From positions 1,240,001 to 1,304,000 of the forward strand of contig NZ_CANLVF010000001.1 of assembly GCF_947494555.1 (NCBI RefSeq): a stretch of 64,000 nt of DNA. The letters are read 5' to 3'. The notes beneath the pieces are model-generated. The model was not told the origin of the DNA. It saw nothing but the letters and a program-made list of their open reading frames with translations, and ran no database searches. Of the stretch, positions 23,257-34,883 are shown piece after piece. The DNA is from an uncultured Roseibium sp. Its GTDB lineage: Bacteria; Pseudomonadota; Alphaproteobacteria; Rhizobiales; Stappiaceae. The first letter of the stretch is position 1. The number at the start of each line of letters is the position of its first letter. The translations under genes and the position numbers were made by a program.

Positions 23257-24921
23257 ATGAAACGCATTGCGTTTGCCGTTCTTCTGCTTCTCTGCGGTAT
23301 TGCGGCGCTACTCCTGGTCGGCAAACCTTTTGACCTTCGGACGTCGTCGACGGCGCTGGCATCACTTGAACCAGCGTTTCAGTCTGAGCGGGATCGCGGC
23401 ATAGCTACCTTCGGTTTCGGCGATTTCGGTGCGCTGAGCACAGACACACTCAAAACCTCGGCGGTTCCTTGGAAACTCGCCGTCTCGGCTTTGGCTCTGC
23501 AACAGACGCATGGGGATTTGAATGCCGTTGGCGAGGTGGATATCAGTGCACTTTTCCGCACTTTCGGGTTTCACAGTCCCGGAAAGATTGCGAACTGGCC
23601 AAGCGGGCTGTCGGAGCCGGATCTGTCCAAGCCGGTAGGCCTCAACACAGGCCTTGCAAGCCACGATTTTCTGCCGACAGCTGTCACCATCGCCAATACC
23701 GGATGTGCCGCCTGCCATGCGAGCGTGACCTACACGGCAGACGGAACGCCGGACACCGAGCGGATCTGGCTTGGCATGCCAAACAGTTCGATCAATCTGG
23801 AAGCTTATGCGTCTGCGCTTTTTTCCGCTTTCAAAACCTATGGTGACGACAGCGGCCTTTTGCTGGAAACCGTTCAGCAGCTTTTTCCCGAGACGACCTG
23901 GCAGGAGCGGCAGACCTTGCGTATTGCGATCCTGCCCCTTCTTCAAAAGGAGATCGTTGAGCGGCAAAAAACCTTTGGCCGGTTGCTGCCATTCTCGGCC
24001 GGGCTGCCCGGAGCGACGAATGGTCTGGATGCCCTTAAAAACCAGTTGGACCTCATTCCGGACGGCGCAACCGTCGAGAAGAGCGCCTTCAACTCCATCC
24101 CGGATCTGGGTGAACGGCACTGGAGGCGAAGCTTCCTGAATTCGGCCGTTTATGCGCCGCCTGGAAGTGATCTCCAATCGGAGACGCGACCGGAGGATCT
24201 CGACAACAAGCATCTCCAGGAAATGGCGTCTGTTATCGCCTATTTCACTGTTCCGAGCATGGGTGTTAGCGGGGAGGTTGCCGAGGCGCATATCGAAGAT
24301 GCGGAAGCCGTCCTCCAATGGCTGACAACTTATCGGCCTCAACCGTTTCCGGGGCAGATAGACAGAACACAGCTGCAACTCGGGCAGTCGGTCTATGCTG
24401 CAAAGTGCAGTCGCTGTCATGGCGTTTACAACAGCAGTCTCGAAACACCTGAACTCATCTCGTTCCCCAATTGGTTAGGCGATGTCGGAACCGACAGACG
24501 GCTTATGGAACTGACAGACGAAAGTGTCGCGGAGGCGGTCAATGCCGGCCTGTTCGGTCGTTACATCAGCGCCAAAAGCACAGGTGCCTATGCTGCCCCG
24601 CCGCTAACCGGCATTTGGGCTAGCGCGCCTTATCTCCACAATGGCAGTGTTCCAACGCTGTGGCACCTGATGCGTCCGGACCAGCGTCCGCACAAATTTG
24701 TTGTCGGTGGGCACTCTCTCGATATGAAAAAGGTCGGCATACGCGGGCAAAAAGATGGAAATGGAGGATGGATGCCAGGCAACGAGCACATCCCCTGGTC
24801 GCTTGCAGCGGAGATCGATGTCAGTACATACGGCCTTGGGGCTCAGGGGCACGAAAGCGAGTTCAAAAACCTTACGGAAGACCAGAAAGACGCGCTTCTG
24901 GAATACCTCAAGCTTCTATGA
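23257..24921 (+). CDS. Periplasmic di-haem c-type cytochrome
   Basis: 554 aa. N-terminal signal/anchor (MKRIAFAVLLLLCGIAALLL). Two CxxCH haem-binding motifs: CAACH (C150-H154) and CSRCH (C384-H388). The C-terminal part with YAAPPLTGIWASAPYLHNGSVPTLWHLM resembles the cytochrome c peroxidase/RoxA-like superfamily, where this region supplies a distal haem contact. The N-terminal half is less familiar. It could be a peroxidase, a RoxA-like dioxygenase or an electron carrier; I cannot decide. Convergent with the nitroreductase-like gene, overlapping its end by 14 bp. Confidence 0.82.
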   Translation: MKRIAFAVLLLLCGIAALLLVGKPFDLRTSSTALASLEPAFQSERDRGIATFGFGDFGALSTDTLKTSAVPWKLAVSALALQQTHGDLNAVGEVDISALFRTFGFHSPGKIANWPSGLSEPDLSKPVGLNTGLASHDFLPTAVTIANTGCAACHASVTYTADGTPDTERIWLGMPNSSINLEAYASALFSAFKTYGDDSGLLLETVQQLFPETTWQERQTLRIAILPLLQKEIVERQKTFGRLLPFSAGLPGATNGLDALKNQLDLIPDGATVEKSAFNSIPDLGERHWRRSFLNSAVYAPPGSDLQSETRPEDLDNKHLQEMASVIAYFTVPSMGVSGEVAEAHIEDAEAVLQWLTTYRPQPFPGQIDRTQLQLGQSVYAAKCSRCHGVYNSSLETPELISFPNWLGDVGTDRRLMELTDESVAEAVNAGLFGRYISAKSTGAYAAPPLTGIWASAPYLHNGSVPTLWHLMRPDQRPHKFVVGGHSLDMKKVGIRGQKDGNGGWMPGNEHIPWSLAAEIDVSTYGLGAQGHESEFKNLTEDQKDALLEYLKLL

Positions 24922-25882
24922 GGAGCTGGCGCGCAGCCAATCGGGCTTTTGGCGGTTGCCTGTTTCCCGGATGTGGTCCAACGCGCAGTACCGTGGTCAG
25001 GTCGCGGTTATCGGGCAAGCGGTAAAGGCGAACAACCTCTTGCCGCGCGGCTGCATTGTCCGCAAGAACGGCCATCGGCCAGGCGGCAAAACCTGCCTGG
25101 GTGAGGGCGATCCAGAAATCATAGAACCTGCCACCGCTCGTCCAGCGGTCTTCCCCCTGTGGCCTGTGAAAGGCGACCAGGCCCGTTGCGGTTACGGTCT
25201 TGCTGTGTTCGGAAACCACGGCCTTGGCAAAACCGATGCGATCGATCAGTTCAAACATGGGGCGGCGCAACACCAGCCCAGCGGCCCGGGCCTCCAGCCC
25301 TGACATTGCAAGCGCGTCTGCAGATAGTCCGTCGGTGTCCCAGTGCGGGTTAGACCGGCTCAACCGCATCCAATCCAAAAGTTCGCGCCGGAAGTCGGGC
25401 GCGCGCATGATTGCCAGACTCGCCTGATCATTCCATTCGGACAGCGCCTCGATCTGGTCCTTCGCCTGGGTCAGGGCCGTATCGTCTCTGGAGGCGCAAA
25501 TCTCCTCAAGCGCTTTGCGGGCGTCGATTGAAGGTGCTTCAAATCCAGCTCTGAAGGTGGTTCTCTTATTGAGCAATTCAGCCGGTAGCACGGGACCCGC
25601 GTCGGAAGATAGCTGAATGCGGGCGCGATCCCCGTCGGCTTCCCATCCTGACGTTCCCATGCCATTGCGGGCCAGAGCCAGGATTGTCCCGTAAAGGGCG
25701 GCGCCCCCACTCAAGCGCGCATCCTTGTTTTCAGGGTCGCCGATCGGGAGCAGCCGAGAAGGCTCCAGACTAAGAAGAATGGCGTTGTCGCCGTCAGCCT
25801 GCCAGCGCGTCGGTTGTGTGTTGTGTGCCGACGGTGCCAGATTGGCTTCTTCGGCGATCCTTTCAAGAAAGTCCGGGGTCAC
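24908..25882 (-). CDS. Acg-type nitroreductase-like flavoprotein
   Basis: 324 aa from GTG 25882, which overlaps the stop of the upstream GNAT-like gene by 4 nt; the longer frame to 26197 is a shadow inside that gene. Nitroreductase-fold features of the Acg-like branch: AEEANLAPSAHNTQPTRWQ at residues about 9-27, DPENKDARLSGGAALYGTIL and a C-terminal ALTQAGFAAWPMAV. FMN-dependent oxidation or reduction of a small molecule is likely. Last gene of the five-gene ThiF/GNAT operon, where a flavin oxidoreductase would act on an adenylated or acylated product. Confidence 0.82.
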   Translation of the reverse strand: MTPDFLERIAEEANLAPSAHNTQPTRWQADGDNAILLSLEPSRLLPIGDPENKDARLSGGAALYGTILALARNGMGTSGWEADGDRARIQLSSDAGPVLPAELLNKRTTFRAGFEAPSIDARKALEEICASRDDTALTQAKDQIEALSEWNDQASLAIMRAPDFRRELLDWMRLSRSNPHWDTDGLSADALAMSGLEARAAGLVLRRPMFELIDRIGFAKAVVSEHSKTVTATGLVAFHRPQGEDRWTSGGRFYDFWIALTQAGFAAWPMAVLADNAAARQEVVRLYRLPDNRDLTTVLRVGPHPGNRQPPKARLAARQLLIEA

Positions 25883-26988
25883 TTGAGCACCTTTCTGAAA
25901 AGGTGCGTGCGGTGAAGCTGATGCCCTCCGGCCTTTTCCGTTTGAGCAAGGCTCGCCGGATTGACGTCGGCGATCCAGGTGTTGCCGAGTGTCTCGTAAC
26001 CGGTTGCCTTCATGGACAGAATGACTTGCCTCAGCACGACCGGATTGATGCCTTTCCCGTGCATGTCGGCGCGCACGGCGGCATAAATCAGAATGGCGCG
26101 GCGGTTGGTGAACCTGTGGCGCAGAAAGTGCCACGGCATCGACAGGCCCGGGCGTGAGCGAATGCGTTGAAGAAACGGGTTCAGATCCGGAACGCAAAGT
26201 ATTGTCGCCACAGGCTCGCCGCGATAGGTCAGCAGGGCAGAGATCCTGGGATCGATGATCCAGACCATGTCTTTGGCCTGGAAATTGTATTCCTCGGCGC
26301 TCACCGGAACGAACATGGGATTTTTGGCAAAAGCGGAATTCAACAGGAAGCGCGCCTGTTCCATTCGCTCCTTGATGTTCCAGCGCGAGATCTTTGCAAA
26401 CTGGAAGTCCGGATCGTCCAGGACTGCCTGCTGCTTCGGCCCGATCGCCGGAGCTTCTTTTTTCTTCAGATCGATCTCGAAAGTTGCCATCGGGAATTCA
26501 GCCGAATAGCCGAACTCCTCCAGAAATTGCGTAATGTGTGGAGGATTCCAGACCTGATCGGTATAGGGCGTGTTCTCAAACCCGTCGGTGACGACACCGA
26601 TCTGCTGCATGGCCGTCAGATTGAAATTTCCGGCGATTTCCTCAAGCTTGCGCTCTCGCGCCCAGTTTTCTGCCGCGTTCAGGAGAGCGCCAGCCGCCTC
26701 CTTGTCTTCCGCGCAGTCAAAGTATCCGAAATAGGCGCGCCGCAATCCGTGCAATTCATTTGAGGCAGTGTGGACATGAGCAGTAATGCGGCCAATAGGG
26801 CGGTCGTCTCTGAGCGCAGTGAATATCGAAATCTCGCCCTGATCTGAAAACAACGGGTTCTTGTCATGCGACACGAACCTCTGCAAATCGGAGCGCAGGG
26901 GCGAGACGAAGGGACTCTGCGAACCGTAAGCATTGAAGGGTGCTTCGAAAAAATCGTCGAAGTTACCAGTCTCAATCCGCAGGTTCAT
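25879..26988 (-). CDS. GNAT-like acyltransferase (YghO-like)
   Basis: 369 aa. Contains an N-terminal segment QSPFVSPLRSDLQRFVSHDKNP, ADELHGL-like acceptor region (ASNELHGLRRAYFGYFD), FNLTAMQQIGVVTDGFENTP and a second GNAT-like half (ILIYAAVRADMHGKGINPVVL), as in the E. coli YghO group of N-acyltransferase-superfamily proteins. Overlaps the membrane-protein gene upstream and the nitroreductase gene downstream by 4 nt each. Function inferred: acyl transfer to an amino compound. Substrate unknown. Confidence 0.78.
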   Translation of the reverse strand: MNLRIETGNFDDFFEAPFNAYGSQSPFVSPLRSDLQRFVSHDKNPLFSDQGEISIFTALRDDRPIGRITAHVHTASNELHGLRRAYFGYFDCAEDKEAAGALLNAAENWARERKLEEIAGNFNLTAMQQIGVVTDGFENTPYTDQVWNPPHITQFLEEFGYSAEFPMATFEIDLKKKEAPAIGPKQQAVLDDPDFQFAKISRWNIKERMEQARFLLNSAFAKNPMFVPVSAEEYNFQAKDMVWIIDPRISALLTYRGEPVATILCVPDLNPFLQRIRSRPGLSMPWHFLRHRFTNRRAILIYAAVRADMHGKGINPVVLRQVILSMKATGYETLGNTWIADVNPASLAQTEKAGGHQLHRTHLFRKVLK

Positions 26989-28193
26989 ACCGTATCCTTC
27001 AAGATTGAATCGCGCTGGGCAATGACGCGGGCGATTGCGAAAGCAGACCGCAGACTGCTGCTTGATGTTGCGGCGAAACCTGCGGGCGACCCCACCGCTA
27101 CGGTCAACGGCGTTTCGGCAACGAGAATGACTTCATTACCGCCGACGCGTGAAAGCAATTCCCTCAGCTGGCTTTGCGCTGCCGTATCGTGAGACTTGTT
27201 TTTGGGAAGGTCTGACAAGGCAATCGCACCACTCGGTTTCAAATGATTGAAAAGCGTCTCCCTGTCGTAGTCCTGAAGTTCGTCTCCCCGGATCATGGTG
27301 TATCCTGCCGTCAGACCGTAGCGATCAAGTGCTGCAAGAAAGTCTTCAAGGCTCTCCGTTTTTCGCATGGCTCCAAGCAAAGAGGTTTGCCGGCGGTCTC
27401 GGCGGATGGCAGCAGACGACAGACCGAGAACAAGCACGAGCATCAGCGACACGACGATTGCCAGCGTTTCCAGCGTTTCCTTTGCGGAAAGCCCGGTTTG
27501 GAGATCGATCAGCCACGCGGCAAGTCCAGCGGTCAGGGCGATTGCGGCGACTGCAAAAAATACGCGCGCCGCACTCGCTATTCGCGCTTCCAGCGTTACC
27601 GCAACCCAGGCGACGGTCAACGCACCAAGGCCGGAAAGGTACGGCAGGTGTTCAGGCGGCAGAAGGTCGTAGTCCGACAGGAGAAGGATCATGACGATCG
27701 GAATTGCGATTGCAAAGCGGTTGATCGCGATGTTTTCCGTCTGTGACAGGCTTTGCCGGTCACGCGTCACGAGCAGATAAAAGACGAGTGCAAAAGACAC
27801 AAACTGATAGATCAACACCAGATACAAAAAGGTTGGTGAGAAAGTGATCGCGCTGGGCAGAAACAGGGCCGTAAACCCGATCGCTCCCATACCTGCAACT
27901 ACCATCAGTTTGACAAACCCGGGTGCGTGCCGCCGCAAAAAGCCTTCGGCAAGCAGCAGTGCCGCAACGGGTATGAGTGCTGCCGCCAAAAACATGGCGC
28001 TGCGGATAAAGTCGATTGTGACCAGCCAGCTGGCAGCCCGCAGAAAATAGAACGCTGCAACGACCATCAGGGTAAAGCGGAAACGGCCCGCGACACCGCC
28101 GCCTGCCGGATCGATCTGGTAGCGGACAATCAGAAGACCTGCCACCGCCGACAGGGTCACCGTCAGATCGGTTACGAGTTGCGATTCAGTCAT
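26985..28193 (-). CDS. Polytopic membrane protein of the ThiF/GNAT operon
   Basis: 402 aa, about eight or nine hydrophobic helices in the first 260 residues (for example FRFTLMVVAAFYFLRAASWL, LYLVLIYQFVSFALVFYLLV and TLAIVVSLMLVLVLGLSSAA), followed by a soluble C-terminal domain of about 130 residues (RRDRRQTSLLGAMRKTESLE...). I do not recognise the family. The layout resembles membrane sensors or transporters with a cytosolic domain, but no kinase or cyclase motif is visible. Overlaps thiF-like upstream by 8 nt and the GNAT-like gene downstream by 4 nt. Confidence 0.75.
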   Translation of the reverse strand: MTESQLVTDLTVTLSAVAGLLIVRYQIDPAGGGVAGRFRFTLMVVAAFYFLRAASWLVTIDFIRSAMFLAAALIPVAALLLAEGFLRRHAPGFVKLMVVAGMGAIGFTALFLPSAITFSPTFLYLVLIYQFVSFALVFYLLVTRDRQSLSQTENIAINRFAIAIPIVMILLLSDYDLLPPEHLPYLSGLGALTVAWVAVTLEARIASAARVFFAVAAIALTAGLAAWLIDLQTGLSAKETLETLAIVVSLMLVLVLGLSSAAIRRDRRQTSLLGAMRKTESLEDFLAALDRYGLTAGYTMIRGDELQDYDRETLFNHLKPSGAIALSDLPKNKSHDTAAQSQLRELLSRVGGNEVILVAETPLTVAVGSPAGFAATSSSSLRSAFAIARVIAQRDSILKDTV

Positions 28194-29067
28194 CGGACGA
28201 CCCGATCATGCCAGCCAGTTGCCGGCGCACGAACGGTTCCAGGATCGCGGCAAGCGGGCGTGGCAACGGTCGCTCGATCTTTGCTTTATAAGGATTGAAA
28301 AACCATCCGCGTTCGTCGGTGCTGTTCGGCAAATCGAGCAGCAGTCCAAGCGCTTCGTAGGCCATCAGCGCTCCGGTGTTGATCACCATCGGGGCAAACG
28401 ACATCCGGCTGCGCCGTCCGGCCGCAACCTCTGCTGCAAGGTCCAGATCGATGTAGTGCCGGGATGACGAATTCAGCATCACGAACACGGCTTCAGCGAA
28501 AAACGCTTCGCTGCGCTGCGTGTCCGTGATGGCGTCCCATTGCGTCTGTGTTGTCGGATACCGCAGGCGTTCCTCGGGTGTCGGCCGCCCGGGCCTGGTG
28601 ACATAAACCGACGGTAATGGCGATGCGTAGGCGTCGATCACCGGTCGGCCGAGTTTACGCGCGGTGCGATACAGAAGCAGGGTCGCAGCAAGATTGTCGG
28701 TGCCGTTCACAACAACCGCGGCTTTCGAGATGAGTTCTGAAGCCGCATTCGTCCAGGAGGCATCGAAAACATCGATCTTGGCCTCTGGGTTGATCTCCAG
28801 GCACTGGTCTCTTGTCGCTTCTGCCTTTGGATGATCAAGAGAGCGGAGGTTGGCAAAGACCTGCCGGTTGAGATTGGACGTCTCAAAGCAATCGAGATCG
28901 GCCAGTATCAGGTTTCCGACGCCGGAGCGTATGAGCGACTGGATCGCTGCGCCCCCCATGCCCCCGGTTCCGCAAACAAAGACGCAGGCGTCGTTCAGCT
29001 TTTGCTGCTGCTGTTCGGTGACGAAACCGATGTTGCGAGTGGTAAATTCGGAGTAGGTAAAGGTCAT
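28186..29067 (-). CDS. E1/ThiF-like adenylyltransferase without catalytic cysteine
   Basis: 293 aa. Rossmann ATP site CGTGGMGGAAIQSLIRSGVG (GTGGMGG, residues 33-39), ribose-binding D57/D59 in LADLD, Arg finger in NLNRQ (residues 65-69), K81 in DHPKAEATRDQC and NGTDN after strand beta5. Only four cysteines are present (28, 32, 60 and 89), all in the nucleotide-binding half; there is no CxxC zinc knuckle and no cysteine in the C-terminal half where ubiquitin-type E1s and MoeB/ThiF have theirs. So it probably adenylates a carboxylate without forming a thioester, as MccB-like enzymes do. No ubiquitin-like gene is adjacent. Overlaps its neighbours by 4 and 8 nt. Confidence 0.88.
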   Translation of the reverse strand: MTFTYSEFTTRNIGFVTEQQQQKLNDACVFVCGTGGMGGAAIQSLIRSGVGNLILADLDCFETSNLNRQVFANLRSLDHPKAEATRDQCLEINPEAKIDVFDASWTNAASELISKAAVVVNGTDNLAATLLLYRTARKLGRPVIDAYASPLPSVYVTRPGRPTPEERLRYPTTQTQWDAITDTQRSEAFFAEAVFVMLNSSSRHYIDLDLAAEVAAGRRSRMSFAPMVINTGALMAYEALGLLLDLPNSTDERGWFFNPYKAKIERPLPRPLAAILEPFVRRQLAGMIGSSDD

Positions 29068-30002
29068 CGCGCCCGCAAAAGTCCGTAGTCTTTTTTCGAA
29101 TTGAACCAGTGGGCCACCGGTAGGAAAACCCGCCGCGTGATAACAAGGACACCCAATGCGGCGAGTTGTATCAGAGACCCCCGCGGAACGGACCGGGAAA
29201 CATATCTTTGTGCCGCTGCGAGATCGATCAGGCCGATCTGCAACAGGTCGTCACCACGGTCGTAGTTGAGCTCCCGCGCGCACCAGACATTGTATTTCTC
29301 GTCGCGATGTTTTGATGCTTCTTCGATGGTTTTTTTCAGATCATCCGAACCGCCGGTATAGGCGTTTTTGATGAGAAAGCGTTTCTCATCAAATTCAGCG
29401 TCAGTACCAACGCCGAACACGCTGCGATGGGATCGCATGATCTCACGGGCAATCAAGACTTTGCGAAAATCTCTGGGTTCCGGCTCTTCCGGTGTCGGGC
29501 TTACTTCCGAAAAAGTGTCCGTGACCATGCCGACAACGGCGGGCACTTGCGTAACGTTGGAAACATAAAGGGGCCGCAAGCCGCCGCGAATGAACAGCAA
29601 AAGGCATGTCAGGCCGTACAGGATCCATGACAGTCCCTTTTGGCGCTCTGACGGATCCACCATGACCAGACCGAGATGGATAACGCGCCTCAAGGTCCCG
29701 GACTGCTGAACATCCATGAGCGACAACGCATTGAACGCGATCGGTTTTTGATCTTTCGAGCGACGGACAAGGGTGATGATCGCGTTTTCGAGCCGTTCGC
29801 GCTTGCCGGACAAAACTCCATAGTCGAGCGCGCCGCTCTCAAGAGAGGCGGTCGCGACGGTTAGCAGATCCGATTGGAAGCCCTTAAGGCGATCAGTGTC
29901 CATCCAACGGCCCGGGCGCTCGACGATCTCAACGGTGTTGGCGCCGCTCTTGAACGACACATTGAGGTATTCCCTACTGATTGCTTTGGCGATCAGCCTC
30001 AT
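29064..30002 (-). CDS. GNAT-like protein, first gene of the ThiF operon
   Basis: 312 aa. A GNAT motif A-like stretch LGLVMVDPSERQKGLSWILYGLT (around residue 129) follows a beta-rich N-terminal half with IAFNALSLMDVQ; the C-terminus has a helix (LIQLAALGVLVITRRVFLPVA) that could be a membrane anchor. I cannot assign a subfamily. The stop overlaps the thiF-like ATG by 4 nt. As the first gene after a 162-bp gap, its upstream region probably contains the operon promoter. Inferred role: acyltransferase in the same pathway. Confidence 0.75.
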   Translation of the reverse strand: MRLIAKAISREYLNVSFKSGANTVEIVERPGRWMDTDRLKGFQSDLLTVATASLESGALDYGVLSGKRERLENAIITLVRRSKDQKPIAFNALSLMDVQQSGTLRRVIHLGLVMVDPSERQKGLSWILYGLTCLLLFIRGGLRPLYVSNVTQVPAVVGMVTDTFSEVSPTPEEPEPRDFRKVLIAREIMRSHRSVFGVGTDAEFDEKRFLIKNAYTGGSDDLKKTIEEASKHRDEKYNVWCARELNYDRGDDLLQIGLIDLAAAQRYVSRSVPRGSLIQLAALGVLVITRRVFLPVAHWFNSKKDYGLLRAR

Positions 30003-30164
30003 CAGAACCTGCTCATGTGTGTCTTGGGGAACTGTGCCTTTAAAGCAAGGCGCCGGTTCCCGGTACGCGGACTATCTCTTGTCAGACACCTCTCAGATGC
30101 CCAGTTGGATCTAAAGATTCCATGAATCCCGATTGAACGAGTCGCCGCTCAGGATCCTGTTGGA

Positions 30165-30656
30165 TCAGGACGCGATCCGCGGGCAGGGGCTGCCTTGCTC
30201 TGCCCTGGACTTGAGACCCTGCAGGCTCTGCAGTGTGTTGGGGTTGCCCGGAAGCACGAAACTCTGTTCCAGGGCGGTGCGGACATTGTTGATCACGGCA
30301 AGATCCTGGACCGCAAGTGTCTGGCACTGCGAACCGGTGAACCGTACTCTAATGCGAATGACGCGATCGCCATTGTCGGATGGACCGAACTCGCTGTCGA
30401 GTGTCGGGTTCTCACCGGCCATCGGGCGTTCCAGGATCACCATGTTGGGCTGGTTCTGGAGGATCGTGGTTCCCCGTTCCTGTGCACTCGACACCAGTGC
30501 CGTGCGTACCGCGACGGGGTCGGCAGCGATGTTGACGCTTTGGGCTCCCGCGGGAACATCAAGTCGCGGCTGGTTGCCGAGCGAAGCCGTCTGGTTGGTG
30601 GACTGGCAGGCAGCGAGGGCGAGGGCGCAAAAGCCGAAGATTACGATGTGTCGCAT
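30165..30656 (-). CDS. Small lipoprotein of unknown function
   Basis: 163 aa from ATG 30656 (MRHIVIFGFCALALAAC); the longer frame begins with TTG at 30668. The lipobox LALAAC places the lipidated Cys at residue 17. The mature part (DPVAVRTALVSSAQERGTTILQNQPNMVILERPM) has a small alpha/beta domain seen in other short alphaproteobacterial lipoproteins, and ends with a CPRIAS tail. Membrane-anchored, probably outer membrane or periplasmic face. Same strand as, and between, the coiled-coil gene set and the ThiF operon. Confidence 0.78.
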   Translation of the reverse strand: MRHIVIFGFCALALAACQSTNQTASLGNQPRLDVPAGAQSVNIAADPVAVRTALVSSAQERGTTILQNQPNMVILERPMAGENPTLDSEFGPSDNGDRVIRIRVRFTGSQCQTLAVQDLAVINNVRTALEQSFVLPGNPNTLQSLQGLKSRAEQGSPCPRIAS

Positions 30657-30826: not shown

Positions 30827-32281
30827 TCAGAACTGATCGCCGGTCTTGAATCCACCACCGCCGAAACTTCCCCCGCTCTTGAAACCACCGCCTCCGAACT
30901 TGCCGCCCCTGCCGCTGGATCTGCGGCCGGATCGTCCGAAACCGCCCATCGATTTCGGTAGTCCCGTGCCGTTTGGAAAAGCCACCTTGCGACCGCGCGG
31001 CTTGCGGCGCCGGTGCGACCGCTCTGCGCGTGCCCAGTAGTCGGCACCCGTGATAGCACCCTTGACCAGCTCGCCGAGCAGAACCGTGGTGAGTTTGTCG
31101 TCGGAGAACGTGGATTCCCAACTGCCATAGCCTTTGGATCGGAAACGCTTGATCACATCTGCAAGTTCAGCTCGCCGGCGGCCGATATCGCGCTGTAATT
31201 CGCGGTCCTGGCGTATTTCCCGCGCGACCTGTTCAACTCGGTCCCTGAAATCTTCTATGCGCTGAACGATCTTTTCATCTTCGGGAGAGGGGGTGTCGAT
31301 GGCCGCCTGCCAAAGATCATGCAGATCATCTGCCTTGAGCGATTCCGACAGATGCCGCTCGGCTTTCTGGAAATCAGCATCCTCGCCGCTGGAAAATTCG
31401 GCAAGAGCGCCTGAAAGCGTTTCGATCTGCCGGTCCAGCTTTTCTAGATCGGTATCAATCTGTTCGATTTCGTCACTATAGGTTTCGATCGAGCCGACGA
31501 GATCCGTTCCGGCAGCATCCGTCATCGCATTGCGGCTGAATTCCGCGAGCTTTTCCTCTTCCGCAGCTGCAATTTCTGCGCAGCGTTCCGCGTGCCGCGC
31601 CATGCGTCCGGGAATTCCCGTCAACATGGCATAATTTGCCCTGGCATCATCGAAGCGGATCAGGCCGGCGACCCAGCGGTCAAGGGACCGGGTAAGGCCC
31701 CGGTACTGGTAGTCCGGCGTGCCATAGCCGCGTTGCCAGAGATAAACGAAGAGCGGATCGGCATCATAGGCCTTGCCCTTGACGTCACGATCCTGGTCTG
31801 ACGTCCTGGCCTTCTCTTCCGCCGCTTCCGCTGTCGCGATGGCGCGCTCGGTGGCATCGCGCTGCGCCAGATACGATTTGTCGCTTTCCAGGCGCCCGTC
31901 GACCGCTTCCATCAGGTCGTCCATCTGGTTCTCGGCCGCATCGCGTGCGTCATCGAGTTCCTGACGCTTTTTCTGGTTCTGGCTGCGCTCCGTCTCGCTT
32001 TGGCGCAGTTGCTCGCTCAAAACCTTGTAGTCGTCGCTGCGCTTGTCGAGAAGGCGCCTGGCCTCGCGCGCTGCGCTGTCCAACCGGGTGTTGAGCGTTC
32101 CGGCAGCGTCCGTGTCCAGCCGGAACCGCGCCAGATCGCGGTAGGCCTCACTTTGCCGTTCCTGCAGGTCCGTCACGGCCCGCGTCGAACGCTCGATGCG
32201 TTTGCTCAGCTCTGCTTCTTCACGCCTGAGATCTGCGAGCGACTGTTCGATCGTGCCAAGGGTCTGCCGCCCGGTCAGCAT
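30827..32281 (-). CDS. Long coiled-coil protein with Gly-rich tail
   Basis: 484 aa. The first roughly 160 residues are heptad-rich coiled coil (IEQSLADLRREEAELSKRI, EQLRQSETERSQNQKKRQEL), followed by a YLWQRGYGTPDYQYRGLTRS globular segment, a second coiled coil, and a low-complexity basic and Gly-rich C-terminus (GRSGRRSSGRGGKFGGGGFK...). No signal peptide or transmembrane segment. I do not recognise a family. Third gene of a set with a single-pass membrane protein and a TelA-like coiled-coil protein, 37 bp after the preceding gene; likely part of one membrane-associated assembly. Confidence 0.78.
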   Translation of the reverse strand: MLTGRQTLGTIEQSLADLRREEAELSKRIERSTRAVTDLQERQSEAYRDLARFRLDTDAAGTLNTRLDSAAREARRLLDKRSDDYKVLSEQLRQSETERSQNQKKRQELDDARDAAENQMDDLMEAVDGRLESDKSYLAQRDATERAIATAEAAEEKARTSDQDRDVKGKAYDADPLFVYLWQRGYGTPDYQYRGLTRSLDRWVAGLIRFDDARANYAMLTGIPGRMARHAERCAEIAAAEEEKLAEFSRNAMTDAAGTDLVGSIETYSDEIEQIDTDLEKLDRQIETLSGALAEFSSGEDADFQKAERHLSESLKADDLHDLWQAAIDTPSPEDEKIVQRIEDFRDRVEQVAREIRQDRELQRDIGRRRAELADVIKRFRSKGYGSWESTFSDDKLTTVLLGELVKGAITGADYWARAERSHRRRKPRGRKVAFPNGTGLPKSMGGFGRSGRRSSGRGGKFGGGGFKSGGSFGGGGFKTGDQF

Positions 32282-32318
32282 GTGCGGGTCACCGGTGTTG
32301 CCGCAGGGCCAAGCCTTG

Positions 32319-33254
32319 CTACCATGTCGTTATCGCTCCATCCTGAACGCCGCCGCGCCAATTGATGTCGATCTCGCCGCGCCGTTTCTGGCCGAGAACT
32401 CCCTTCTGGACGATGCCATCTTCCATCTTGTCCCGCCGTACGGCGTCATAGATCGCTTCCGAGACGCGCTGGCCCCATTTATCGACGGTCTCGGAAGTAC
32501 CCGATTCCTCAGACAGGATCGTTTGGCTGATGGTGTTTCCATCAGGATCGATCGCCTCGACGACAATGTAGAAATTTTCCGAATTCGGATTTGCCTCCGG
32601 AATGCGTGTCAGTCCGGTCGGTTCGCCCTGGCGCGACACGATCTGGACTTCGAAGACTTCCTGCAGCCGGCCCGCCAACGACCGAAGGTCGGCTTCCGCC
32701 TTGAACGCGGCTTCGTTGTTGCCGTCCTGTAAAGCAAGGCGGCCATCTTCGGCGAGCGAAGCAGCCTTTGCTTCGACGGTGCCGTCTTCCGTCAATCCGT
32801 CAATGCGCTGAACAAGCTCTGTGTAATTCGAGGACAGAGCTTCAAGCCGTGCGAGTAGCTCCGCTTCGGCACGTTGCTGCGGCATGACGACGAAAAAATA
32901 CCATGCTGCGGCGGCAACAATGACGACGGCACCGGCGGCCGCAAGCCATTTGGACCACGTGCCGCGGGAGATGTAGATCATCGCCAGGGAACGCTGAAAC
33001 CCGGTGTTGGGCGGCGAGTAGACAAAGCGATCCCGCTTGAGGTTTTCAACACCGGCTTTCAGGATGTGATCGGGAACCTCGATGCCCTGCGAGGCATAAA
33101 CCTGCCGCAACCTCTCAAGCATTGCCGCATCGTGGTTGCCGGCTTTCAATTCCCGGGTGACCTGGCCTTCCTCGTGACGGAGCGTGTCGACCACGTCCAT
33201 CACCATCATGAGGTCGTCGAGAGGGGCGTCGGATTTGTTCGCCGTGCTTGCCAT
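32319..33254 (-). CDS. Single-pass membrane protein (DUF6384-like)
   Basis: 311 aa. N-terminal cytoplasmic helical domain (DDLMMVMDVVDTLRHEEGQV; LRQVYASQGIEVPDHILKAG) of about 95 residues, one transmembrane helix (WLAAAGAVVIVAAAAWYFFVV, residues about 103-123), a short coiled coil, and a periplasmic beta-rich domain (NFYIVVEAIDPDGNTISQTI). This matches my recollection of DUF6384-type proteins. Sits between the TelA-like gene (63 bp upstream) and the coiled-coil protein (37 bp downstream). Confidence 0.75.
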   Translation of the reverse strand: MASTANKSDAPLDDLMMVMDVVDTLRHEEGQVTRELKAGNHDAAMLERLRQVYASQGIEVPDHILKAGVENLKRDRFVYSPPNTGFQRSLAMIYISRGTWSKWLAAAGAVVIVAAAAWYFFVVMPQQRAEAELLARLEALSSNYTELVQRIDGLTEDGTVEAKAASLAEDGRLALQDGNNEAAFKAEADLRSLAGRLQEVFEVQIVSRQGEPTGLTRIPEANPNSENFYIVVEAIDPDGNTISQTILSEESGTSETVDKWGQRVSEAIYDAVRRDKMEDGIVQKGVLGQKRRGEIDINWRGGVQDGAITTW

Positions 33255-33317
33255 CGATACCTGTCTTCAATCACGACCTTGGGCCGGCGAACGCCGGCCG
33301 CAAGCGATCTAATGTTA

Positions 33318-34523
33318 TCAGAGGCCTTGTCCCTGAGCGGTCAGCTTGGCCAAGCGGCGTTTGCCTTCTTCGACCGCATTGCGAATTTCCTCTGAATTCT
33401 TGGTCGACATGTCGCGCATCTCGGAAATGATCTCGCGCGACTGGACCTGGAAATTCACCACGGAATCGACCAGCTTCTTGACCGAAGCCGCTGCGACCGT
33501 CGGACCATAGCCCGCCTTCAAGGCTTCCTTCTGCACTGCGTCGCCGATCTCAGCGAGCGTTTCCAGGCTTTTGTTGATCCCGTCTTTCATGGCGTTCAGC
33601 GTTTCGGTGGATTCATGAAGTCCCTGCAATCCTGTGAAAGAAGCGTTCAGAGCTGTCAAAACGGATTCGTTTGTCGAAAAGAAGCTGACCGATTGGGCAT
33701 AGACCCGCTCTTTGGCGTTGGTCGTTTGAACAAGCCGCGCCATGATGACCTCGGACGTGTTGTAGCCGACCGTCAGGTTGTCGGAGAGATCCTTGGCGAT
33801 CTGGTAGCGCTTTTCCTCGTCCTGCATTTCGCGCAGGCGCTCGTCGCGCGTAAGCTCCAGGCGCGCCTTCTGGGCCGGATCTTCACCCGTATAGGCTTCG
33901 ACCTCATTGGAGGCCGATTCCAGAGCGAGCTTTTTGCCGTTGAGCTGTTCCGTTGCCATGTTCAGCAATTCGAGCGCCGTGACTTCGGCCTGCTTCAATG
34001 CTCCGCGGAAATCGCGGTAGGCCTCCAGAATCGTCTGCTCGCGTTCGATCTGATCTTTGGTCGCGTGTGCAACTTCTTTGTATGTTCCGCGGATGTCCTG
34101 GAAGCGGTCGGAAATGGTTCCCCGACGCATGTCACGCCACTTGTTGGCCATGTTCTCAGTAAAGGAGATCTTGCCGTCGGCGAGCTGGTCGACAAGGCTC
34201 TTTGCGTCGTCGCGAATGGAGTTGAACGCCTCGGTGATTTCCTCATAGCGCTCGCCGATATCCATTTGCTGGACCTGGGTGCGTACAACTTCATTGAAGT
34301 TCGACGCCTGGCTGAGCGTGCGCGAGATTACCAGAACCTTGTCTGGCGAAAGGTCCGAAATCTGTTCGAGAAGAGCGTTGATCGGGGCGTCTGCTTCCGA
34401 TTCCGGAGATATCCCTATGTCTCGCAATGTCGATAATGCACGATCCAGATATTGAAGAGGTGAAAAGCTACCGGCGGGGGCCGCCGCTGTTTCCGTGCTT
34501 GCTGGTGTAGACGCGTCTGTCAT
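33318..34523 (-). CDS. TelA-like coiled-coil protein
   Basis: 401 aa from ATG 34523, which has an AGGAGG ribosome-binding site 7 nt upstream; ten further codons upstream are unlikely. Mostly alpha-helical (QYLDRALSTLRDIGI, NKWRDMRRGTISDRFQDIRG, KDQIEREQTILEAYRDFRGA, SVSFFSTNESVLTALNAS). The pattern is like the TelA/toxic-anion-resistance family, whose members are linked to membrane stress; I rate this at moderate confidence. First gene of a three-gene minus-strand set. Confidence 0.68.
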   Translation of the reverse strand: MTDASTPASTETAAAPAGSFSPLQYLDRALSTLRDIGISPESEADAPINALLEQISDLSPDKVLVISRTLSQASNFNEVVRTQVQQMDIGERYEEITEAFNSIRDDAKSLVDQLADGKISFTENMANKWRDMRRGTISDRFQDIRGTYKEVAHATKDQIEREQTILEAYRDFRGALKQAEVTALELLNMATEQLNGKKLALESASNEVEAYTGEDPAQKARLELTRDERLREMQDEEKRYQIAKDLSDNLTVGYNTSEVIMARLVQTTNAKERVYAQSVSFFSTNESVLTALNASFTGLQGLHESTETLNAMKDGINKSLETLAEIGDAVQKEALKAGYGPTVAAASVKKLVDSVVNFQVQSREIISEMRDMSTKNSEEIRNAVEEGKRRLAKLTAQGQGL

Positions 34524-34883
34524 TTTCGACCTCCTCTTCCAAACATTCTTCAACAGCTCCTGTATTCTAGCTGGGCTGCCGGGCCGTCCCCTTTACACTA
34601 TTGTGCCGCAAGTAAGGGCAGGCTTACGCCGCTCTGTCAACGGCTTACGGTCTGCCGGAAGCCGTGCATCATCAATGCTGGAAAAACGTGCTTGCGCGAA
34701 AATAGCCTTAAGCCCGCTTTGCAACAGCTCTCTATCGCCTGGCCGCATCACGTTTCCGGATCTCGGAAATGTCTGACCAACTTGTTTGACCGCGACATGT
34801 GTCACCCCCGGAATGATCTTGCTCGTCGAAGACCCGGTACCTGAATGCCCAGTACCCGAATACCAACTACATTTCCGGCCTCT
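34524..34883. other. Intergenic between psuG and the TelA-like set
   Basis: 360 bp without a convincing gene. It should hold the promoter of the minus-strand TelA-like set near its left end and the downstream region of psuG near its right end. GTACCTGAATGCC and GTACCCGAATACC at about 34838-34866 form a short imperfect direct repeat of no known meaning. Confidence 0.4.

What the first reader, a model, noticed from the sequence alone, without database searches (positions are those of the whole stretch)
24908..30002. Five-gene translationally coupled locus: GNAT / Cys-less E1 / membrane protein / GNAT / Acg-type nitroreductase
All junctions overlap (4, 8, 4 and 4 nt), so the five proteins are made together and probably form one pathway. 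The E1-like enzyme has an intact ATP site (GTGGMGG, LADLD, NLNRQ) but no cysteine after residue 89, no CxxC, and no ubiquitin-like partner. With two acyltransferase-like proteins and a flavin oxidoreductase this looks like a small-molecule or peptide-derivative pathway using direct adenylate attack, as MccB does. The polytopic membrane protein may export or sense the product. I know of no described system with this exact set.
Basis: partly seen in the sequence, partly recalled or inferred. Interest (0 to 1): 0.8.

Follow-up and report, generated by a model that had tools for sequence, protein, structure and literature searches.

The report
Five-gene lipid-making cassette, likely oxazolone-type
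A tightly linked set of five bacterial genes, found scattered through many marine and soil bacteria, most likely attaches a fatty chain to an amino acid and then closes and oxidises it into an unusual ring-containing lipid, much like a pathway recently found in other bacteria but built from different enzyme lineages and with extra parts.

Summary
In detail: five minus-strand genes (24908-30002) with overlaps of 4, 8, 4 and 4 nt. The E1 has an intact ATP site and no cysteine after residue 89. The cassette is real: 60 of 80 fetched relatives carry A-B-C-D-E in order. Another 13 carry A-B-C-E, and all 13 of those genomes keep one D elsewhere.

Best reading: a lipid pathway that works like the described acyl-oxazolone pathways (oxzAB, tyzACB, trzAS). 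A (GNAT fold) makes an N-acyl amino acid, B adenylates and cyclises it without a cysteine, E (FMN) desaturates it. The reactions are inferred; nothing was assayed.

It is not filed as a member of that family. E forms its own clade apart from ThiF-linked enzymes, B its own clade, and A has no sequence match to FeeM-type synthases. D is a full-length relative of E. coli YghO, the bacterial ceramide-synthase family. C is an unnamed 8-9-helix membrane protein with a soluble domain. A RoxA-like dihaem cytochrome overlaps E convergently; it lies near the cassette in 21 of 80 relatives and near D in 4 of the 13 genomes where D has moved.

The MccB-like peptide reading is not supported. New variant of a known kind.

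The parts
29064..30002 (-). Gene A: GNAT-fold acyltransferase, 312 aa; proposed N-acyl amino acid synthase; hydrophobic C-terminal helix (residues 274-298)
28186..29067 (-). Gene B: ThiF/E1-type adenylating enzyme without conserved catalytic Cys, 293 aa; proposed cyclase
   Evidence: PF00899 3e-36; best NCBIfam model NF006077/PRK08223, 102.8 bits, then ThiF 94.6 and MoeB 89.7, all below their cut-offs; own clade 99/98
28951..28971 (-). ATP-binding glycine loop GTGGMGG of B (residues 33-39)
   Evidence: translation; G33, G35, G36, G38, G39 invariant in the seven aligned cassette E1s
28861..28875 (-). NLNRQ motif of B (residues 65-69)
   Evidence: N65, N67, R68, Q69 invariant in the seven aligned cassette E1s; N65, R68, Q69 shared with MoeB/ThiF/TcdA
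26985..28193 (-). Gene C: polytopic membrane protein, 402 aa: 8-9 helices of membrane-spanning length (3-233), long helix 237-278, soluble-looking alpha/beta domain 282-401
   Evidence: model pLDDT 92, pTM 0.84; no family over a cut-off; fold matches are 7-helix bundles only, no Foldseek hit at 0.001
25879..26988 (-). Gene D: YghO / bacterial ceramide-synthase (bCerS) family N-acyltransferase, 369 aa
   Evidence: Acetyltransf_1 2.9e-5; full-length match to E. coli BL21 YghO, 3e-25, 23% identity, hhalign 99.8%, 2e-28
24908..25882 (-). Gene E: oxidoreductase of the nitroreductase superfamily (flavin-dependent oxidase type), 324 aa, GTG start; proposed desaturase
   Evidence: NF047509 1.5e-32, 113.4 bits, below the cut-off of 199; NF005901 (Rv1355c/TrzS family) 4e-14; solved relative 2YMV Acg 1.3e-13; own clade 100/98
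25802..25840 (-). LAPSAHNTQPTRW signature of E (residues 15-27)
   Evidence: L15, A16, P17, H20, N21, Q23, P24, R26, W27 invariant in eight aligned members; aligns with APSLHNTQP of Acg 2YMV
23257..24921 (+). Linked gene, convergent and overlapping the 3' end of E: RoxA-like c-type cytochrome, 554 aa, two CXXCH; probable partner of D
   Evidence: PF21419 2.6e-21; within the flank (up to 10 kb) of 21 of 80 relatives, two CXXCH in 20 of 20 clustered members, and within about 1 kb of the detached D in 4 of 13 genomes

Best explanation
The cassette makes an amino-acid-derived lipid by acyl-oxazolone-type chemistry. Steps, all inferred from family and context: (1) A transfers a fatty acyl group from acyl-CoA or acyl-ACP to the amino group of an amino acid. 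(2) B binds ATP and adenylates the carboxylate of the N-acyl amino acid. With no conserved catalytic cysteine and no ubiquitin-like partner found, the amide oxygen attacks the adenylate within the molecule and closes a five-membered oxazolone (azlactone) ring. (3) E, with FMN and O2, introduces the alpha-beta double bond, before or after ring closure. (4) D, a ceramide-synthase-type N-acyltransferase, adds or supplies a second acyl group; it is kept even where its gene has left the operon. (5) C, a membrane protein with a soluble-looking domain, anchors, senses or moves the lipid. In some lineages a RoxA-like dihaem cytochrome, probably periplasmic, further oxidises the product together with D's step. 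Shown here: gene order, homology, conservation, ATP-site residues, absence of a conserved Cys. Inferred: every reaction, the cofactors, the substrates, and the roles of C, D and the cytochrome.
For: Same triad of enzyme classes as the proven pathways: acyltransferase + ThiF + FMN oxidase give acyl-oxazolones in PMC10404671 and PMC12856293 (sections read), and a NAS + ThiF + nitroreductase cluster is linked to N-acyl dehydrotyrosines in PMC12479983. B's best NCBIfam model is PRK08223, whose over-cut-off members in two Pseudovibrio-group loci (L024, L026) lie divergently beside a PF21926 FeeM synthase. B and E match the corresponding halves of the Rv1355c (= TrzS) model NF005901 (46.0 and 51.8 bits), though weakly and not specifically (see against). 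B residue D124 sits at the ThiF/MoeB Asp position; TrzS D217, described in the same terms, is needed for cyclisation (that the two are the same position is inferred). Cassette order A-B-C-D-E in 60 of 80, A-B-C-E in 13 of 80. One D-type protein elsewhere in 13 of 13 A-B-C-E genomes. On plasmids, D at 49.5% identity or more occurs in 10 of 44 D-family records, the same 10 that carry A and B; the other 34 reach 27.3% at most. In 35 of 80 loci one or more of an Aas-type acyltransferase (25), PspA (20), YiaA (16) and a TetR regulator (26) lie nearby; two of the 35 have TetR alone.
Against: The NF005901 matches are not specific: the genome's own MoeB (41.9 bits) and its Acg-family enzyme (44.2 bits) score nearly as high. 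A has no detectable sequence relation to FeeM or exosortase-type synthases, and FeeM is not among the 50 listed structural rows (inconclusive). E is not in the ThiF-linked clade. B is about equally distant from acyltransferase-linked E1s (24.5% mean identity), MoeB/ThiF (24.1%) and TcdA (22.7%), so homology alone does not choose the reaction. No oxazolone cluster in the papers I read is described with D or C. In PMC12479983 no oxazolone was seen from the ThiF-bearing N-acyl-tyrosine clusters, so the ring may not be the end product. L064 (a metagenome bin of unstated completeness) has A-B-C with neither D nor E at the locus and no D in the genome; L060 has B-D-E without A and C at the locus.
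Confidence: 0.58

Rival explanations
1. The adenylate or oxazolone made by B is not the end product but an activated acyl donor that is opened by an amine, giving an N-acyl (dehydro)amino acid amide or dipeptide-type lipid. Direct adenylate attack is kept; the end product is an amide, possibly two-chained through D.
For: D is a ceramide-synthase-family N-acyltransferase, kept in 13 of 13 A-B-C-E genomes, and is not explained by a plain oxazolone pathway. Oxazolones are readily opened by acid and alcohol (PMC12856293). No oxazolone was seen for related clusters (PMC12479983).
Against: No amide-forming enzyme other than A and D in the cassette; D-family enzymes are described as acyl-CoA N-acyltransferases in the passages I read, not as users of azlactones.
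Confidence: 0.2
2. The product is a diffusible signal and C is its receptor: a helix bundle joined by a long helix to a soluble domain, with A, B, D and E as the synthase, comparable to an acyl-homoserine-lactone circuit.
Against: Helical bundles reach such Z by chance; Foldseek gave nothing at 0.001. No output domain is recognised, and no DNA-binding or kinase gene belongs to the cassette.
Confidence: 0.12
3. B is a MoeB/ThiF-type or ubiquitin-like activating enzyme in a cofactor or protein-modification branch, and the neighbours are incidental.
For: B matches ThiF/MoeB models and solved ThiF and MoeB, and is no more distant from them than from the acyltransferase-linked E1s.
Against: No universal Cys after residue 89 and CxxC in 1 of 67; no Ubl match among the 15 proteins scanned; a separate MoeB exists in the same genome (L029); the neighbours are conserved in 60 of 80.
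Confidence: 0.04
4. MccB-like: B activates the C-terminus of a short ribosomal peptide.
Against: No conserved short ORF between 30003 and 30164 in the three near genomes compared; the cassette holds two acyltransferase-like proteins.
Confidence: 0.02

Closest known systems
Acyl-oxazolone pathways OxzAB (Pseudoalteromonas rubra), TyzACB and TrzAS (mycobacteria, Rhodococcus)
   Same: Acyltransferase, ThiF-type E1 and nitroreductase-superfamily FMN enzyme encoded together; use of the adenylate for ring closure (there shown, here inferred)
   Different: Here all five genes are separate and overlap; A is not recognisably FeeM-like by sequence; B and E form their own clades; D and C are extra
N-acyl dehydrotyrosine clusters (NasY + ThiF + nitroreductase; stieleriacines, thalassotalic acids, kyonggic acids)
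   Same: Same three enzyme classes; overlapping or nearly touching ORFs in two of them
   Different: No ceramide-synthase-type D or membrane protein C in the section I read; other taxa
Bacterial ceramide synthase bCerS / YghO (Aca)
   Same: D is a full-length homologue of YghO
   Different: Here it sits with an E1 and a flavin-type enzyme; no serine palmitoyltransferase in the cassette and only 31-34% identical relatives of that enzyme in the genome
TcdA / CsdL (cyclic t6A synthase)
   Same: E1-type enzyme that dehydrates a small carboxylate into a ring (recalled; only abstract starts in a search listing seen)
   Different: Acts on tRNA; about 23% identity to B
MccB
   Same: E1 fold, direct adenylate chemistry (recalled)
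   Different: Peptide substrate with a precursor gene (recalled); none found here
Acg family FMN oxidoreductases (NF047509)
   Same: E shares the PS.HNTQP signature; Acg 2YMV is its best solved match
   Different: E scores below the family cut-off and falls outside the Acg clade

Membership tests
Acyl-oxazolone pathway (Oxz/Tyz/Trz) | ThiF-type E1 with intact ATP site | tested here: met
Acyl-oxazolone pathway (Oxz/Tyz/Trz) | Nitroreductase-superfamily enzyme fused to the E1 or encoded with it | tested here: met
   same operon, two genes away; E in order in 60 of 80 plus 13 of 80 loci
Acyl-oxazolone pathway (Oxz/Tyz/Trz) | That enzyme belongs to the ThiF-linked desaturase lineage (FDO-A) | tested here: not met
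   E clade 100/98 is apart from six ThiF-linked enzymes (100/99) and ten Acg-family enzymes (95/89).
Acyl-oxazolone pathway (Oxz/Tyz/Trz) | N-acyl amino acid synthase of FeeM / AHL-synthase-like fold | tested here: inconclusive
   A has a GNAT fold; no sequence match to FeeM or TIGR03694
Acyl-oxazolone pathway (Oxz/Tyz/Trz) | Product is an acyl-oxazolone | not testable with these tools
   needs metabolite analysis
Bacterial ceramide synthase (bCerS/YghO) | Full-length homology to YghO/Aca | tested here: met
Bacterial ceramide synthase (bCerS/YghO) | Genome also has serine palmitoyltransferase | tested here: inconclusive
   best own-genome hits 34% and 31% to E. coli Spt, may be other enzymes of that superfamily
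MoeB/ThiF cofactor E1 | Conserved Cys after the adenylation half, and a CxxC zinc site | tested here: not met
   no universal Cys column after residue 89; CxxC in 1 of 67
MoeB/ThiF cofactor E1 | Ubiquitin-like partner encoded nearby | tested here: inconclusive
   none among the five genes and ten flanking ORFs scanned; short ORFs not scanned
MccB | Short precursor peptide gene beside the E1 | tested here: inconclusive
   nothing conserved between 30003 and 30164 in three near genomes; a gene elsewhere is not excluded
Acg family (NF047509) | Score over the curated cut-off of 199 bits | tested here: not met
   113.4 bits

The most novel reading that the evidence does not exclude
A deep or independently assembled lineage of oxazolone-type lipid synthesis, scattered through many genera of Alphaproteobacteria, in which a ceramide-synthase-family acyltransferase and a RoxA-like dihaem oxygenase turn the activated N-acyl amino acid into a two-chain, periplasmically matured membrane lipid or signal, with C as its membrane receptor or carrier: a lipid class not yet described.
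Probability: 0.25. Interest if true: 0.82.

Novelty: new variant of a known kind. Interest (0 to 1): 0.62.

Why it matters
Oxazolone lipids were tied to enzymes only recently and their physiological role is unresolved (PMC12856293, discussion). If this cassette does the same chemistry with enzymes of other lineages, the chemistry reaches beyond the described clusters, into tractable marine and plant-associated bacteria (Roseibium, Ruegeria, Ensifer, Shinella, Bosea, Bradyrhizobium). It is broad but sparse: 8 of 398 Pseudomonadota genomes and 3 of 385 of the window's class. The ceramide-synthase-type partner, the unnamed membrane protein and the dihaem cytochrome point to a further processed lipid. 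A, C and E are annotated 'hypothetical protein' in all three annotated plasmid records I read, so the pathway is largely invisible to present annotation.

Tried and rejected
Precursor peptide: all frames of 15 codons or more in 29991-30260 were compared with the upstream regions of four loci (L016, L017, L018, L034; L017 and L034 are the same genome, so three genomes). In the closest relative (L016) many frames match because the DNA is 83% identical throughout. In the next (L017/L034) DNA similarity stops near 30165, at the end of the upstream coding stretch, and resumes only in the last 36 nt at A; in L018 nothing aligns as DNA. So no peptide is conserved next to A in these.

A as FeeM: profile-profile comparison gave probability 0.2%. 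The FeeM profile had only five members, so this is weak. An earlier run used a wrong hhalign option and wrong-strand ORFs and is discarded. In the structural second look FeeM was not in the 50 listed rows; this shows nothing either way.

TrzS family model in 249 Pseudomonadota genomes at E<=1e-40: none, and no control rang, so no conclusion.

C as PrsK-like kinase sensor, as transporter or as acyltransferase-3: no family support (scattered weak hits in one or two members only).

E1 tree: cassette clade 99/98, acyltransferase-linked clade 80/97, MoeB/ThiF apart (branch 100/97), the four cofactor rows together only 70/9; TcdA has a very long branch and the tree is rooted only at the midpoint, so I claim no sister group. 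'Acyltransferase-linked' is my label for 16 E1s: a family scan named the acyltransferase for L171, L172, L174, L176, L024 and L026; for the rest it was judged by eye or not judged. NTR tree: three clades, unrooted; it does not say which two are sisters.

Rows left out: trees used 28 of 67 cassette E1s (random plus chosen loci) and 15 of 61 cassette NTRs (random, under 380 aa, plus the window). Alignments A6 and A7 used 36 and 32 rows. L022 (gene A in two frames; B cut by a run of N) was left out of all protein alignments. The ORF picker behind searches misses real genes (D in 38 records, against 63 C/D junctions), so neighbour counts from it are lower bounds. The 80 loci are the best 80 of 119 confirmed. 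Near relatives count twice: G033, G068, G048, G024 and G049 recur as L034, L045, L079, L087 and L098, judged from contig lengths.

Not tested: whether the TetR-PspA-YiaA-Aas block is common in these bacteria without the cassette; the base rate of D on chromosomes of genomes without the cassette (only plasmids gave a control). The Aas family is named from plasmid annotation, not from a family scan of mine.

Change made on checking: confidence in the best explanation lowered from 0.60 to 0.58 and the cofactor rival raised from 0.03 to 0.04, because the NF005901 matches of B and E are hardly above those of the genome's own MoeB and Acg-family enzyme.

Full report
WHAT IS THERE. Five genes on the minus strand fill 24908-30002 with overlaps of 4, 8, 4 and 4 nt. 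In order of transcription: A (312 aa), B (293 aa, ThiF/E1), C (402 aa, membrane), D (369 aa, GNAT), E (324 aa, nitroreductase superfamily).

IS IT MORE THAN CHANCE. In the window's own family, 13 of 87 genomes have an E1 match at 1e-20 or better; 8 of them (the window's included) are close (57-100% identity) and 5 are at 33-35%. All five genes stand in order in six of the seven other close genomes; in the seventh (G049) B runs into a run of N and continues at the start of another contig, and A lies in two frames. A wider scan returned 80 named loci, mostly Alphaproteobacteria, one of them Lysobacter. Of these 80: A-B-C-D-E in 60, A-B-C-E in 13, B-D-E in 1 (L060), A-B-C in 1 (L064), A-B in 1 (L098, the G049 assembly gap), and four cut by contig edges (L041, L090, L099, L110). 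4-nt overlaps are the commonest form of every junction in the cassette order. Gene A was found in 8 of 398 Pseudomonadota genomes, all of the window's class, and in 3 of 385 genomes of that class in a broader draw, the window's own counted in both: broad but sparse.

D IS KEPT. In the 13 A-B-C-E genomes D is not lost but has moved: each of the 13 has exactly one D match at 1e-8 or better, with E from 3e-172 to 5e-197. On plasmids, D at 49.5% identity or more occurs in 10 of 44 D-family records, and these are the same 10 records that carry A and B; the other 34 reach 27.3% at most. Exception: L064, a metagenome bin of unstated completeness, has neither D nor E at the locus and no D in the genome.

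WHAT THE PROTEINS ARE. B: ThiF family (3e-36), best curated model PRK08223 but below its cut-off. Its ATP-site residues are shared with MoeB, ThiF and TcdA; no universal Cys follows residue 89 and CxxC occurs in 1 of 67. E: nitroreductase superfamily, with the PS.HNTQP signature of Acg, below the Acg cut-off. D: a full-length relative of E. coli YghO, 3e-25 by BLAST and 99.8% by profile. YghO is listed as the acyl-CoA N-acyltransferase gene (aca) of dihydroceramide synthesis in PMC9386255 (passages); bCerS is the corresponding cytoplasmic, peripheral-membrane acyltransferase in PMC11087976 (passages); that the two names cover one family is partly recalled. A: no named family, but a GNAT fold in the model, with two GNAT Pfam models each weakly hit by 5 of 32 relatives. 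C: 8-9 helices, a long helix and a soluble-looking alpha/beta domain, model pLDDT 92, no named family.

HOW IT LIKELY WORKS. In the described pathways an acyltransferase makes an N-acyl amino acid, a ThiF-type enzyme cyclises it with ATP, and a flavin-dependent oxidase of the nitroreductase superfamily desaturates it with O2 (PMC10404671, abstract, results part 1 and discussion; PMC12856293, abstract and sections 4, 7, 8). The clusters for N-acyl dehydrotyrosines have the same three classes, in two cases with touching or overlapping ORFs (PMC12479983). I found such clusters in unnamed Pseudomonadota genomes too: acyltransferase, E1 and oxidoreductase in a row in L172, L174 and L176, and by eye in L181; E1 and oxidoreductase adjacent in L173; an E1-oxidoreductase fusion with an acyltransferase nearby in L171. 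In two Pseudovibrio-group loci a PRK08223-type E1 lies divergently beside a FeeM synthase (L024, L026). The window's A, B and E fit those three roles, and this is my best reading, at 0.58. Against it: B and E match the TrzS-family model hardly better than the genome's own MoeB and Acg-family enzyme do.

WHERE IT DIFFERS. None of the three core proteins falls inside the lineages I could compare. E forms a clade (100/98) apart from six ThiF-linked enzymes (100/99) and ten Acg-family enzymes (95/89). B forms a clade (99/98) apart from the acyltransferase-linked E1s (80/97) and from MoeB/ThiF, and is about as distant from each. A shows no sequence relation to FeeM or exosortase-type synthases. So the cassette either split off very early or was assembled independently from the same enzyme classes. 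The data do not decide.

NEIGHBOURS. Two kinds of neighbour recur. A RoxA-like c-type cytochrome with two CXXCH lies in the window convergent to E and overlapping it (23257-24921), and within the flank of 21 of 80 relatives; it also lies within about 1 kb of the detached D in 4 of 13 genomes (L211, L212, L216, L217), so it seems to follow D. In 35 of 80 loci one or more of an Aas-type acyl-ACP/phospholipid acyltransferase (25), PspA (20), YiaA (16) and a TetR regulator (26) are present; two of the 35 have TetR alone (names). Only L039 has both kinds; 55 of 80 have one or the other. These neighbours point to membrane lipids; whether the second block is common without the cassette was not tested.

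WHAT IS NOT SHOWN. No reaction, substrate, cofactor or product was tested. The roles of C, D and the cytochrome are guesses from family and context. The literature library holds open-licence papers only.

VERDICT. A real, conserved, largely unannotated five-gene system that works like an acyl-oxazolone pathway but is not filed as a member, because the desaturase-lineage test was not met. New variant of a known kind; interest 0.62.

Noticed in passing
window 23257-24921 (+): RoxA-like dihaem c-type cytochrome, convergent with and overlapping E; it lies near D in 4 of 13 genomes where D has left the cassette.
   Followed up: partly
L024:2729-5162, L026:6432-8904 (and, by likeness only, L027:7469-9902): In Pseudovibrio-group genomes a FeeM N-acyl amino acid synthase lies divergently beside a PRK08223-type E1; no nitroreductase is obvious by eye among the neighbouring ORFs.
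   Followed up: partly
L171, L172, L173, L174, L176, L181: Other oxazolone-type clusters in unnamed Pseudomonadota genomes: TIGR03694 or FeeM-like acyltransferase with E1 and nitroreductase, one of them an E1-nitroreductase fusion.
   Followed up: partly
L065, L072, L075, L077, L086, L108 (upstream of A): In six Octadecabacter-like A-B-C-E loci two genes that look like formate dehydrogenase FdhA and FdhD (named by eye from sequence, not by a family search) stand upstream on the same strand.
   Followed up: no
L060 (Yoonia sp.): Only B-D-E plus the cytochrome are together; whether A and C lie elsewhere in that genome was not searched.
   Followed up: no
G000:C2:462136-463068 (L196): The same genome has a true Acg-family FMN oxidoreductase (245 bits, over the cut-off) outside the cassette.
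   Followed up: no
window 30827-34553 (-): Genes upstream of the cassette, including a DUF6384 protein (32319-33254); in the 81 records clustered their families recur only in L034 and L098.
   Followed up: no
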